NCBI GenBank assembly: GCA_900766795.1
Contig: CAAFWX010000027.1
Coordinates: forward strand, 1 to 6,162
Source of the DNA: Oscillospiraceae bacterium
GTDB lineage: Bacteria > Bacillota_A > Clostridia > Oscillospirales > Ruminococcaceae
Length of the DNA stretch: 6,162 nucleotides
Direction of reading: 5' to 3'
Below the pieces are notes generated by a model. That model saw only the letters and a program-made list of their open reading frames with translations, was not told the DNA's origin and did no database searches. The position numbers and the translations under genes were made by a program. Shown one piece after another: positions 1,506 through 5,590 of this stretch (the first letter of the stretch is position 1; each line of letters opens with the position of its first letter).

Positions 1506-2339
1506 ATGACAGGATTTATAAAACACAGAGAACCGACACAGAAAATTGTTATGCTTGAAACTGCGCTTTTGCGCCCGAACAGGTCACAACCTCGAAAGGA
1601 GTTTGACGAATGCGCTTTGCGGCAGCTTTCGGACAGTATAAAAGAAAATGGAATGCTCCAGCCGGTGTGCGTCAGAAAAAATGGCGCATTGTACGAGATT
1701 ATCAGCGGCGAAAGAAGAACCCGTGCAGCTAAGCTTGCGGGTTTGTGTGAGATTCCGTGCATTGTCATGAATGTGGACGACGAAAAGTCGGCTGTTCTGG
1801 CACTAATTGAAAACATTCAGAGAAAGAATTTGAACTACTTTGAGGAAGCACTTGCTATTGAGAAGCTGATTTCGGTCTACGGTCTTACTCAGGAAACCGC
1901 CGCAGAGCGGCTCGGAAAGGCACAAAGCACTATCGCAAACAAGCTTCGTCTGCTGCGTTTTTCCGATGAGGAAAGAAGCTTACTTTCCTCGGAGAACATT
2001 TCAGAGCGCCAAGCGCGTGCTTTGATTCGCATTTCAGATGAATCGCTTCGCATGCGCACTCTTCAAAAGGTTGTCGAGAAGAAACTCAACCTTGAACAAA
2101 CTGAGAAACTTGTTGCGGACATTATTGAGGAGAAACCCTTAACAACGCGGGAGAAGCATACCACAGGCAAAATGAAAAAGCTCATGAAGCAGTTTCCTCA
2201 GCCTCCGCGCCTCTATATGAATTCCATAAACAACTTGATAAAGCAGATGAGAGACGCCAAAATTCCCTGCGAAACGCAGAGCGAGAAGAAAGATGGCTAT
2301 TACGAATACATAATCAGATTTCCTGTTTCTGCTGTATAA
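1506..2339 (+). CDS. noc: Nucleoid occlusion protein Noc (ParB-family CTPase clamp)
   Basis: Noc binds dispersed NBS sites on the chromosome and, in Bacillus, tethers that DNA to the membrane to block septum assembly over the nucleoid. The 277-residue product has the ParB/Noc order: N-terminal CTP-binding domain with PNRSQPR (24–30), GERRTRAA (68–75) and ENIQR (102–106); a helix-turn-helix region at about 127–150 with KAQSTIANKLRLL; and a C-terminal dimerisation region with YMNSINNL (237–244) and YEYIIRFP (266–273), which resembles the Bacillus Noc end. Q140, K146, R151 and R168 fit the Noc rather than ParB pattern at the DNA-specificity positions. The position between rsmG and soj is the classical one. 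Only about 13 residues precede the core, so the Bacillus-type membrane-targeting helix looks reduced. The start is well supported by the RBS; in-frame sequence upstream shows no better one. Confidence 0.92.
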   Translation: MTGFIKHREPTQKIVMLETALLRPNRSQPRKEFDECALRQLSDSIKENGMLQPVCVRKNGALYEIISGERRTRAAKLAGLCEIPCIVMNVDDEKSAVLALIENIQRKNLNYFEEALAIEKLISVYGLTQETAAERLGKAQSTIANKLRLLRFSDEERSLLSSENISERQARALIRISDESLRMRTLQKVVEKKLNLEQTEKLVADIIEEKPLTTREKHTTGKMKKLMKQFPQPPRLYMNSINNLIKQMRDAKIPCETQSEKKDGYYEYIIRFPVSAV

Positions 2340-2356: not shown

Positions 2357-2372
2357 TGTTCCACGTGGAACT
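2357..2372. other. parS: parS-like ParB loading site 1
   Basis: TGTTCCACGTGGAACT is a 16-base palindrome that fails only at its outermost base pair. It fits the parS family (TGTTtCACGTGaAACA in Bacillus, with C/G variants at the arms) and keeps the invariant CACGTG centre. The position between noc and soj-parB is typical, since primary parS sites cluster near the origin. I found no other CACGTG in the window. Confidence 0.88.
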
Positions 2373-2391
2373 TTTCGAGATGTGTCGAAAA
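2372..2391. repeat. Seven-base inverted repeat between the two parS-like sites
   Basis: TTTTCGA (2372–2378) and TCGAAAA (2385–2391) form perfect arms around the loop GATGTG. It sits almost exactly midway between the two parS-like palindromes, and its arms would form the top of the long RNA hairpin that joins them. Confidence 0.8.
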
Positions 2392-2415
2392 ATGTTCCAT
2401 GTGGAACATTTTTTT
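2388..2415 (+). terminator. Intrinsic terminator of noc, built from parS-like site 2
   Basis: The arms of parS-like site 2, extended by flanking A and T bases (2388–2392 with 2409–2413), make a hairpin with a tight ATGT loop, followed by TTTTTTT at 2409–2415. It stands about 50 bases after the noc stop and before the soj promoter. An alternative, longer hairpin pairs the two parS-like sites (2357–2408) and ends at the same T tract. Confidence 0.75.
2393..2408. other. parS: parS-like site 2 with altered centre
   Basis: TGTTCCATGTGGAACA has perfect seven-base arms (TGTTCCA/TGGAACA), but its centre is TG instead of the palindromic CG, so CACGTG becomes CATGTG. The centre lies 36 bases from that of site 1. 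It may be a weaker ParB site. It also forms the stem of the terminator that follows, which may explain its retention or its drift. Confidence 0.72.
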
Positions 2416-2457
2416 ATAAGAATTATTTAGAAATAACGATTTTTTATGAAAAAAGGC

Positions 2458-2486
2458 TTTATTTTTATTATAAGGTGTGATATAAT
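2458..2486 (+). promoter_or_regulatory. Candidate sigma-A promoter of soj-parB (extended −10), with AT-rich upstream DNA
   Basis: TGATATAAT at 2478–2486 is a perfect extended −10. The best −35 at 17-base spacing is TTTATT (2458–2463), only a 3/6 match. The stretch 2409–2470 is very AT-rich and could act as an UP element; it also holds the dyad TTATTTAGAAATAA (2423–2436). Transcription would begin near 2493, just before AAAGGGGGA (2502–2510), the RBS of soj. The parS-like sites lie about 80 bases upstream, within reach of ParB spreading. Confidence 0.65.
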
Positions 2487-2516: not shown

Positions 2517-3305
2517 ATGAGTATCGTAATCGGCGTTGTAAATCAGAAAGGCGGCGTTGGAAAAACCACCACCTCTGTGAATATTGCCGCCGGTCTGGGC
2601 ACTCTCGGAAGAAAAGTGCTTCTGATTGACTTCGACCCGCAGGGCAATGCGACAACAGGATTCGGTATAAAGAAAAAAACGCTGGATGTTACTACATATG
2701 ATGTTGTTATGGGCGAGCGCAGACCGCAGGACGCTATCATTCCGACCAGATATAAAAATGTGTCTATACTTCCTGCAACAAACCAGCTTTGTGCGGCTGA
2801 GCAGCAGCTTTTCGGTATGGAAAATCGCTCAACGCAGTTAAGAAAGGCTGTGTTGCAGATTAGAGATGACTACGACATAATCATTGTGGATTGCCTGCCG
2901 TCTTTGGGCATTCTGGCGACAAACGCGCTGCTGGCGGTGGACACAATTATTGTTCCTATGACCTGTGAGCATTTTGCTCTCGAGGGACTTGCGCAGCTTA
3001 TGCAGACGGTGAAATCTGTTAAGAAAAAAGCAAACCCGAACCTCACTATCATGGGTATTGTATTTACCATGCTGGACAAGCGTCTGCTTGCAAGCAACGA
3101 AATCATGCGTGAGATAAAGCGCAGCTTTGACAGCAGCGTGCTGTTCAAGACAGAGATTCCGAGAAACGTGCGAATTTCCGAGGCTCAGAGCAACGGCGAG
3201 CCGATAATGTACTACGACAAGAACTCTAAGGGCGCAGACGCATACAAGAGATTGTCAAAGGAAATTTTGGACAAGTGCCGCGAAATGGAGAAGAAAAATG
3301 GCTAA
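2517..3305 (+). CDS. soj: Chromosome-partitioning ATPase Soj/ParA
   Basis: This is a deviant Walker ATPase that dimerises on ATP, binds nucleoid DNA and is stimulated by ParB; in Bacillus it also controls DnaA. At 262 residues it is of typical chromosomal ParA length. The deviant Walker A motif KGGVGKTT lies at 11–18, with the signature lysine K11. LIDFDPQGN (36–44) is motif A'. IIIVDCLPSLG (121–131) holds Walker B D125; the more usual DCPPSLG has a second proline where L127 stands. EIPRNVRISEA (213–223) and YDKNSKGADAY (233–243) are the usual C-terminal landmarks. The ATG follows a GGGGGA RBS by six bases. The stop overlaps the parB start by 8 bases, which implies coupled expression. There is no N-terminal DNA-binding extension as in plasmid ParA type Ia. 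Confidence 0.96.
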   Translation: MSIVIGVVNQKGGVGKTTTSVNIAAGLGTLGRKVLLIDFDPQGNATTGFGIKKKTLDVTTYDVVMGERRPQDAIIPTRYKNVSILPATNQLCAAEQQLFGMENRSTQLRKAVLQIRDDYDIIIVDCLPSLGILATNALLAVDTIIVPMTCEHFALEGLAQLMQTVKSVKKKANPNLTIMGIVFTMLDKRLLASNEIMREIKRSFDSSVLFKTEIPRNVRISEAQSNGEPIMYYDKNSKGADAYKRLSKEILDKCREMEKKNG

Positions 3306-4155
3306 TAAGAGAACAAAAGGCAGCTTCATGGACCTGCTGGACGATAACGTTATCGAAAACAGCGAAGGCTCTACCACTCTCCGAATCAGCGATATTGAAC
3401 CAAACATCGACCAGCCCCGAAAGGACTTCGACAAGGACGCGCTTGCACAGCTTGCGGATTCAATTAACAAGCACGGCGTTCTCCAGCCGCTGATTGTACG
3501 CTCGCTTTCTTCGGGCGGATATCAGATAATCGCGGGCGAAAGACGTTGGCGCGCAGCTAAAATGGCGGGACTTTCAGAGGTGCCCGTTATCATTCGCGAT
3601 GATATTCGCGACGAGCAGATTATGCAGATTGCGCTGATTGAGAATCTCCAGCGCGAGAATCTGAATCCCATTGAAGAGGCTCGCGGGTACAAGGTGCTGA
3701 TGGAAAACTACCACATGACGCAGGACGAGCTTGCACAGGTGATTGGAAAGGCGCGTTCCTCTATTGCGAACAGCGTGAGTTTGCTCAATCTTCCCTATGG
3801 CGTCATGGATTTGCTCCAGAAAGGCGAGCTTACTGCGGGTCACTGCAAGGCGCTCAAGGCAATAAAGGATACCGCTTTGATGACGGAGGTTGCTTCCCGT
3901 GCGGCAAACGGAGAACTGTCCGTCCGTCAGATTGAAGCGATTGCGAAGCGTGAAGCAGAGCGTATTCGCGAGGAGGAAGAACAAAAGCAGATTACTCCGC
4001 GCGTAACATATTACACCGAGGTAGAAGTAAGCCTTGCGGAATCTCTCGGAACAAAGGTTAAGATTGCCGAGGGCAAGCGGGGGAATACCCTTCAGATAAG
4101 CTTCTCGGACGAGGAACAGCTTAAAGGAATACTTAAGCACTTTTTAGACGACTAA
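3298..4155 (+). CDS. parB: Chromosome-partitioning protein ParB (Spo0J)
   Basis: ParB loads at parS and slides along DNA as a CTP-dependent clamp. It recruits SMC in known Firmicutes and stimulates the Soj ATPase. The 285-residue protein has the CTP-binding motifs GERRWRAAK (80–88) and ENLQREN (115–121). Its helix-turn-helix region runs from about 140 to 163 with [13 protein letters not shown], then GHCKAL (181–186). An acidic and basic linker (about 216–230) leads to a C-terminal dimerisation domain (about 238–285). R153, S159, N164 and G181 occupy the DNA-specificity positions and look ParB-like, not Noc-like. The N-terminal peptide that activates ParA, usually GLGKGLDALF, is diverged to KGSFMDLL (7–14). 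The ATG lies within the end of soj behind GGAGAAG, supporting this start. Confidence 0.95.
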
Positions 4156-5512: not shown

Positions 5513-5569
5513 TGTAATTTTGAAAAGGGTGGGATAATTACAATCTGTAAATTACAAAGAAAATTTACA
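5513..5569. promoter_or_regulatory. Cluster of TGTAA/TTACA half-sites, possible operator
   Basis: TGTAA occurs at 5513–5517 and 5546–5550, and TTACA at 5538–5542, 5552–5556 and 5565–5569. TGTAAATTACA (5546–5556) is a palindrome around one central base. Paired TTACA/TGTAA half-sites are known operators for BlaI/MecI/CopY-type repressors, but no regulator gene is visible here, so the assignment is tentative. The motif overlaps the stem-loop, and one explanation may exclude the other. Confidence 0.35.
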
Positions 5570-5590
5570 GATTGTATTGTTCTACCCTTT
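5524..5590 (+). repeat. Long imperfect stem-loop (29 base pairs, 8-base loop) between serS and the ABC gene
   Basis: The left arm 5524–5553 pairs with 5562–5590 around the loop ACAAAGAA (5554–5561). One base bulges (T at 5538/5539). The inner 14 pairs (5540–5553 with 5562–5575) and the outer seven (AAAGGGT with ACCCTTT) are Watson–Crick. The three remaining departures (5531–5583, 5533–5581, 5535–5579) are all G·U in a + strand RNA. No T run follows, so a simple terminator is unlikely. It could be a structured 3' end of serS mRNA, a leader element or a small palindromic repeat element. No target-site duplication is visible. Confidence 0.8.

What the first reader, a model, noticed from the sequence alone, without database searches (positions are those of the whole stretch)
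2357..2415. Two parS-like sites that together form the noc transcription terminator
The sequence shows two 16-base parS-like palindromes with the short inverted repeat TTTTCGA/TCGAAAA between them and a seven-T tract directly after. In RNA, site 1 plus TTTTCGA can pair with TCGAAAA plus site 2 over about 22 base pairs, with a 2-base bulge and one G·U (2365 with 2400). Site 2 can also fold alone. Either fold ends at the same T tract. Thus a centromere-like DNA site would double as a terminator, and ParB bound there could block polymerase or change termination between noc and soj. The dual use is inference; the pairing is read directly.
Basis: partly seen in the sequence, partly recalled or inferred. 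Interest (0 to 1): 0.72.

Follow-up and report, generated by a model that had tools for sequence, protein, structure and literature searches.

The report
Centromere sites doubling as transcription terminator
Two DNA sites where a chromosome-segregation protein should bind also form, when copied into RNA, the hairpin that most likely ends the neighbouring gene's transcript, and most close relatives keep this arrangement although the sequence changes, so one short stretch seems to do two jobs.

Summary
In the window plus 36 close relatives, 29 of 37 gaps keep a T tract right after the last parS, and 27 of these 29 a paired upstream arm. Across 26 aligned hairpins 94% of arm cells pair, and cells changed on both sides exceed all 500 shuffles (kinship not corrected). 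Some relatives lose parS identity in the upstream arm but keep most pairing; in L137 neither arm is parS, yet hairpin and T tract remain. Gaps without the parS hairpin more often have a separate terminator (6 of 11 against 2 of 27). Best reading: an intrinsic terminator of the noc transcript whose arms are parS, just before the soj-spo0J promoter. ParB binding, real 3' ends and any ParB effect on termination are untested; the T tract may also serve the promoter. Paired recognition sites as terminators are known for DNA uptake sequences; the searches showed none for parS.

The parts
1506..2339 (+). noc, ParB-family nucleoid-occlusion-type gene; its transcript would end at the hairpin
   Evidence: TIGR04285 nucleoid_noc 273.7 bits, below that model's cutoff of 315; best solved relatives are Noc; Noc-type residues at three of the four specificity positions of PMC7383237
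2357..2372 (.). parS-like site 1 = 5' arm of the RNA hairpin
   Evidence: pattern match; fold; in relatives an intact parS or a decayed arm that still pairs at most positions
2372..2378 (+). inner 5' arm TTTTCGA (its first base is the last base of site 1)
   Evidence: pairs with 2385-2391; related inner arms in relatives
2379..2384 (+). hairpin loop
   Evidence: fold
2385..2391 (+). inner 3' arm TCGAAAA
   Evidence: fold
2393..2408 (.). parS-like site 2 = 3' arm of the RNA hairpin; also folds alone
   Evidence: pattern match; fold; each of the 37 near-genus gaps has at least one site with up to 3 mismatches
2409..2415 (+). T tract, predicted 3' end of the noc transcript
   Evidence: sequence; T tract after the last site in 29 of 37 gaps
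2457..2486 (+). predicted soj-spo0J promoter: CTTTAT 2457-2462, TG 2478-2479, TATAAT 2481-2486
   Evidence: CTTTATTTTT-N-TATAAT arrangement best-scored at 18-base spacing in 33 of 38 gaps; no transcription data
2517..3305 (+). soj (ParA) gene
   Evidence: ParA-family matches, the 25 rows shown all below their NCBIfam cutoffs; gene order noc-soj-spo0J
3298..4155 (+). spo0J (ParB) gene, the expected parS-binding protein
   Evidence: TIGR00180 189.2 bits, cutoff 58.45; its top NCBIfam row is nucleoid_noc too, 226.9 bits, below cutoff; ParB-type R173 and G201 equivalents in the alignment to 6t1f

Best explanation
The stretch 2357-2415 is an intrinsic (Rho-independent) terminator of the noc transcript whose two arms are parS sites for Spo0J (ParB). 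As DNA, each 16-mer would be a ParB loading site. As RNA, site 1 plus TTTTCGA pairs with TCGAAAA plus site 2, and polymerase releases at the T tract, ahead of the separate soj-spo0J promoter at 2457-2486. Shown: sequence, predicted fold, conservation and co-change in relatives, fixed position before the soj promoter in most of them. Inferred: that termination happens here, that Spo0J binds the sites, and that the two uses share DNA by economy rather than by a regulatory link.
For: Fold z -6.8. Near-genus set (window, 35 congeners, one neighbour-genus genome): T tract after the last site in 29 of 37, paired arm in 27 of these 29; swapping 3' arms among the 27 lowers pairing (407 paired positions against a mean of 397.1, none of 20,000 swaps as high; 311 against 303.4, fraction 0.0002, for the 21 distinct arm combinations). 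Alignment A1 (26 of the 27; L101 left out for its long loop): 94.0% of 416 cells paired against 91.8% shuffled, 10 cells with both sides changed against 2.6, covariation 0.146 against 0.104, each 0 of 500 shuffles; pairs with a two-sided change 4 against 1.6 (3 of 500), further pair types 13 against 11.6 (37 of 500). The pair of site-1 position 9 with site-2 position 8 is G-C, G·U or A-U in 27 of 27, never A-C, with at least 5 changes on a quick Noc tree. Decayed upstream arms that still pair at most positions: L131, L132, L144, L150, and with more breaks L133, L173. L137: hairpin TCCCAATGATGG...TTGGGA plus T tract, -24.7 kcal/mol, neither arm parS. Separate terminator in 2 of 27 gaps with the parS hairpin and 6 of 11 without (Fisher 0.0035; lists, test). 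Best sense-strand terminator overlaps parS in 20 of 22 gaps of the genus-level set against 8.0 expected. Unequal neighbouring sites lie inverted rather than direct, 17 to 4, and 13 to 1 where a T tract follows. Outside the genus, 13 of 98 sites continue into 4 or more further complementary pairs (0.9% at other positions), and a T tract follows in 19 of 66 gaps against 5 of 66 on the opposite strand.
Against: No transcript ends or ParB binding data. Shuffles and Fisher tests ignore kinship. CATG cores also occur at the parS site 3.5-4.4 kb upstream in several of the same genomes, so that change may come from ParB preference and only the orientation from pairing. Inner-stem matching is weak once relatives are thinned (27, 47 and 149 of 3000 permutations as good for 26, 21 and 13 rows). 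On the opposite strand, 8 of 10 genus-level terminators also overlap parS, and an A tract precedes a site in 13 of 39 genus-level gaps (T tract after: 29 of 39), so direction is less clean there. One slid structure (-2) has as many two-sided cells, 12, though it pairs in only 53%. Outside the genus, terminators overlap parS in 11 of 39 against 7.4 expected, no clear excess. In 25 of 29 gaps the last parS ends 39-42 bases before the -10 box, so the T tract may be kept for the promoter. The 2x2 classes were set by hand from two calls, and counting L137 among the separate terminators helps the result.
Confidence: 0.77

Rival explanations
1. A plain parS cluster: two or more parS sites near the origin for ParB loading. 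The hairpin follows from repeating a palindrome, and the T tract is chance in AT-rich spacer.
For: Clusters of 2-4 parS copies, several without a T tract after the last site, occur in other noc-soj gaps; 8 of 37 near-genus gaps lack the T tract; two palindrome copies always pair.
Against: T tract in 29 of 37 and strand-biased outside the genus, 19 against 5 of 66 gaps; inverted orientation of unequal sites; arms that pair without being parS; separate terminators more often where the hairpin is missing.
Confidence: 0.12
2. The T tract is an upstream element of the soj promoter, and parS next to it lets ParB regulate soj-spo0J; termination is minor.
For: Last parS ends 39-42 bases before the -10 box in 25 of 29 gaps, which puts the T tract roughly where UP elements act (position recalled, not from a call).
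Against: Where the spacing differs (window 72, L129 62, L130 61) the T tract stays with the hairpin, not with the promoter; the idea does not explain the upstream arm. The fourth exception, L132, has a poorly scored promoter call.
Confidence: 0.08
3. The palindrome works as DNA, for example as a cruciform or a preferred substrate for ParB dimers, not as RNA.
For: Long perfect palindromes around single parS sites without a clear T tract exist (L107, L216).
Against: G·U pairs in 18 of the 416 arm cells help RNA but not a DNA cruciform; outside the genus T tracts follow on the noc-sense strand more often than on the other.
Confidence: 0.03

Closest known systems
Chromosomal parS of the ParABS (Soj-Spo0J) system
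   Same: 16-bp palindrome with CACGTG core (CATGTG in site 2), beside soj-spo0J; Spo0J carries parS-type residues at positions 173 and 201
   Different: Positions 5 and 12 are C and G instead of the T and A of the consensus in PMC7383237; here the sites form the arms of a terminator-like hairpin, which none of the listings and passages I saw describes
Intrinsic (Rho-independent) terminator
   Same: Hairpin followed directly by seven T, downstream of a gene, conserved with two-sided changes
   Different: Stem with a 2-base bulge, made of protein-binding sites
Paired DNA uptake sequences in Neisseria used as terminators
   Same: Closely spaced inverted copies of a DNA recognition sequence function as Rho-independent terminators (passages of PMC2397512)
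   Different: Those are uptake signals spread over the genome; here the sequence is a centromere site at one conserved locus
Noc binding site (NBS)
   Same: Noc is a ParB paralogue and the sites lie just after noc
   Different: NBS is TATTTCCCGGGAAATA; these sites have the parS-type core, so they should belong to Spo0J

Membership tests
parS site | match to the 16-bp parS consensus | tested here: met
   3 mismatches each to TGTTTCACGTGAAACA, 1 each if positions 5 and 12 are left free; 2 found against 0.02 expected
parS site | few copies, clustered near the par locus | tested here: inconclusive
   No genome held for the window. Of 43 congeners 39 have a hit, at most 4 per strand; listed hits lie mostly in the noc-soj gap and 3.5-4.4 kb upstream, some on other contigs, and the listing was cut
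parS site | bound by the cognate ParB | not testable with these tools
   needs ChIP or a binding assay; Spo0J has R173 and G201 equivalents
intrinsic terminator | stable hairpin directly followed by a T tract | tested here: met
   -31.3 kcal/mol, z -6.8, T at 2409-2415; not among the hits of the consensus scan
intrinsic terminator | pairing kept by evolution | tested here: met
   with the caveat that kinship is not corrected
intrinsic terminator | transcript 3' end at the T tract | not testable with these tools
   no RNA data held
NBS (Noc site) | CCCGGG core of TATTTCCCGGGAAATA | tested here: not met
   cores are CACGTG and CATGTG
Rfam RNA family | match at gathering score | tested here: not met
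   0 matches in the window

The most novel reading that the evidence does not exclude
A centromere-terminator switch: ParB loaded on the parS pair and RNA polymerase finishing the noc transcript compete for the same 52 bases, so ParB occupancy tunes how much noc transcript reads into soj-spo0J, and termination in turn keeps polymerase from sweeping ParB clamps toward soj. Single parS sites inside extended hairpins with T-rich tails in other genera (for example L053, L110, L112, L117, L213, L227) would be the same device reached in other ways.
Probability: 0.2. Interest if true: 0.82.

Novelty: new variant of a known kind. Interest (0 to 1): 0.62.

Why it matters
ParB loading at parS and transcription meet on the same DNA, and how they affect each other is, to my knowledge, little known. 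A natural element in which the parS sequence is itself the terminator, kept by most members of a genus and with natural variants where one feature is lost (L137: hairpin without parS arms; one clade: parS without T tract), makes that question directly testable with a short DNA fragment.

Tried and rejected
Strand asymmetry of substitutions as proof of RNA pairing: opposite a consensus partner, transitions that keep pairing outnumber those that break it 17 to 4 (counted by species), but sites of the clade without hairpin show the same C>T excess (13 C>T, 2 G>A), so a mutational strand bias can explain it; dropped.

Overlap of terminators with parS outside the genus: 11 of 39 against 7.4 expected; not used as support. 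Nine gaps outside the genus have a parS inside an extended stem with a T-rich tail, but six of the nine also have an A-rich leader, so direction is unclear for those.

Orientation against T tract by Fisher test: p 0.088, not significant; the 17 to 4 count includes close kin.

Automatic classing of parS terminators was too loose in the clade without T tract: it gave 35 of 38 gaps a parS terminator, with a separate one in 5 of 35 against 3 of 3 (Fisher 0.0066). For the 2x2 test I used instead the hairpin list, put L137 among the gaps without parS hairpin, and typed the four counts by hand. Without L137 the second group would be 5 of 10 (not retested). By eye L139 and L167 also seem to have separate terminators; they were not counted. 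A first, looser partner search was replaced.

Scan of viral contigs with the paired pattern: 15 stretches, their sites printed, not followed up. Rfam: nothing. The first genome scan by Noc gave 13 loci, none a congener. Paper searches for parS with terminator words and for a binding site doubling as terminator gave no such report in their listings (in one search only 12 of 24 papers were listed); some searches were for uptake sequences, Noc specificity and parS distribution. Passages only were read: of the RA3 plasmid paper PMC7414963, which place a terminator and parS after orf11 and, in the 12 of 32 places shown, do not say that they overlap; and of PMC12779278, unrelated. In PMC7333895 the find call gave 0 for 'terminat' and in PMC5815017 0 for 'terminator'.

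Full report
What is there. The window probably belongs to an Oscillospiraceae metagenome-assembled genome: its Noc is identical over its full length to P0001, named so in the database, on a 12,292-base contig. Gene order is mnmG end, rsmG, noc, soj, spo0J, serS, then an ABC-transporter ATPase-like frame (mnmG and the last one are my reading of the sequence, not scanned). The 15 site-site pairs are a by-product of repeating a palindrome; the inner arm and the T tract are not.

Which protein. For both ParB-family proteins the top NCBIfam row is nucleoid_noc, below its cutoff, so I separate them by gene order and residues. Noc here carries Q, K and R at the positions equivalent to 173, 179 and 201, and R at 184; Spo0J carries R, S, N and G at 173, 179, 184 and 201. 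I read this from the alignments, using the residues of PMC7383237 (passages), which reports R173/G201 for ParB-parS and Q173, K179, K184, R201 for Noc-NBS. With their CACGTG and CATGTG cores the sites should be Spo0J sites. In the congeners the listed parS hits are few and lie mostly in the noc-soj gap and 3.5-4.4 kb upstream, with some on other contigs (43 genomes, 39 with a hit, listing cut). One congener (G1143) has the T/A form at all three of its sites, and several genomes with a CATG form upstream also have it in the gap, though G1127, G1128 and G1129 show no exact CATG site there. Shared forms within a genome suggest sites that follow one binding protein.

Finding the kin. Noc searches of class and family samples gave at best 51% identity. 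A pattern search for paired TGTTCCA sites hit 10 of 394 order genomes and led, through G683, to the right family (247 genomes) and genus (43 genomes, 40 with a Noc match). With stretches fetched from nine more, the near-genus set is the window, 35 gaps from that genus and one from a neighbour genus (L101): 37 distinct noc-soj gaps. L137, of the same genus but with Soj at 65%, is treated apart. The other 7 of the 43 genomes gave no usable gap.

The hairpin is kept. In 29 of the 37 gaps the last parS is directly followed by a T tract, and in 27 of these an upstream arm pairs with it at a spacing that makes a hairpin. The other two (L135, L139) have a single parS with T7; for L135 the script found a separate terminator upstream, for L139 one is visible by eye. 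The 8 gaps without T tract form one clade (SH-aLRT 99, quick tree). Swapping 3' arms among the 27 lowers pairing: 407 paired positions against a mean of 397.1, none of 20,000 swaps as high; with the 21 distinct combinations 311 against 303.4, fraction 0.0002. On alignment A1 (26 hairpins) 94.0% of 416 arm cells pair against 91.8% in shuffles; cells with both sides changed are 10 against 2.6 and covariation is 0.146 against 0.104, each with none of 500 shuffles as high; pairs with a two-sided change are 4 against 1.6 (3 of 500) and further pair types 13 against 11.6 (37 of 500). Slid structures pair in 30-53% of cells, though one slide (-2) has 12 two-sided cells. The pair of site-1 position 9 with site-2 position 8 is G-C, G·U or A-U and never A-C in 27 hairpins, with at least 5 changes on the tree. 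None of these tests corrects for kinship. A further caveat: the CATG form also appears at the upstream parS of several of the same genomes, so ParB preference can explain the change itself; the hairpin would explain why the two copies face each other. Matching of the inner arms within species is better than between species, but weakly once kin are thinned: 27, 47 and 149 of 3000 permutations as good with 26, 21 and 13 rows.

Pairing outlives parS. In L131, L132, L144 and L150 the upstream arm no longer fits parS well but still pairs at most positions, partly through G·U; L133 and L173 pair less completely. In L137 the parS sites lie further upstream, and before the soj promoter it has TCCCAATGATGG...TTGGGA around an inner stem similar to the others', followed by a T tract; -24.7 kcal/mol. 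By my own count on the sequence this hairpin ends about 42 bases before the -10 box, as in most others.

Division of labour. A separate, non-parS terminator was found in 2 of 27 gaps with the parS hairpin (L098, L132) and in 6 of 11 without it (L100, L135, L137, L149, L151, L154); Fisher 0.0035 (hairpin list, separate terminators, test). This supports that the parS hairpin is the noc terminator where present. The looser automatic classing gives 5 of 35 against 3 of 3 (0.0066). Kin are counted as independent in both. In a third measure, on a genus-level set that includes L137 and the pattern-selected L076, the best sense-strand terminator overlaps parS in 20 of 22 gaps against 8.0 expected; on the opposite strand 8 of 10 do, so direction is not clear-cut by this measure.

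Promoter. The gaps carry CTTTATTTTT-N-TATAAT before soj, 18 bases apart in 33 of 38, mostly with TG before the -10 box. Of the 29 T-tract gaps, 25 have the last parS ending 39-42 bases before the -10 box, so the T tract could also serve the promoter. But in the window (72 bases) and in L129 and L130 (62 and 61) the T tract stays with the hairpin; L132, the fourth exception, has a poorly scored promoter.

Outside the genus. Among 74 other noc-soj gaps taken from Noc hits, so not a random sample (L137 included), 69 hold a parS-like site with up to 2 mismatches. With up to 1 mismatch and L137 set aside, 66 of 73 gaps have 98 sites; 13 sites continue into at least 4 more complementary pairs (0.9% at other positions of the same gaps), with unlike flanks, such as GGGA-parS-TCCC-T7 in L053 and CAGGG-parS-CCCTG-T5 in L117. 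A T tract follows in 19 of 66 gaps against 5 of 66 on the other strand (18 to 4 discordant, 0.0043); in the genus-level set the figures are 29 and 13 of 39. However, terminators overlap parS in 11 of 39 against 7.4 expected by random placement, so outside the genus I claim only that such elements recur, not that they are the rule. Unequal neighbouring site pairs lie inverted 17 times and direct 4 times over all gaps, 13 to 1 where a T tract follows and 4 to 3 where none does; that contrast is not significant (0.088).

What I conclude. The element works like an intrinsic terminator and is built from parS sites. Membership in both kinds is met for sequence features and unproven for binding and for transcript ends. 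[quoted passage not shown] Searches of the open library for parS with terminator, intrinsic terminator, rho-independent, roadblock, noc-soj intergenic or Term-seq showed no report of a parS terminator in their listings; most subscription papers are not in that library.

Noticed in passing
1362-1384: GCCGC-TTTAAT-GCGGC followed by seven T overlaps the end of rsmG, a likely terminator by eye; with the promoter-like site 1429-1457 noc looks like its own transcription unit between two terminators.
   Followed up: no
5539-5576: A 15-pair inverted repeat with a T-containing tail between serS and the ABC-transporter-like frame.
   Followed up: no
L206, noc-soj gap positions 6-361: Eight parS-like sites in a roughly 48-base tandem array, each followed by TTTTTATG or a close variant.
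   Followed up: no
L107, L211, L216, noc-soj gaps: Single parS sites at the centre of perfect 38-base palindromes, in L107 and L216 without a clear T tract; purpose unclear.
   Followed up: partly
L131, noc-soj gap around position 45: The first parS lies inside a palindrome of more than 40 bases, in addition to the parS hairpin downstream.
   Followed up: no
congeners, 3.5-4.4 kb upstream of the gap: A second parS site, probably inside the mnmG coding region (not checked), often shows the same variant as the gap sites of that genome.
   Followed up: partly
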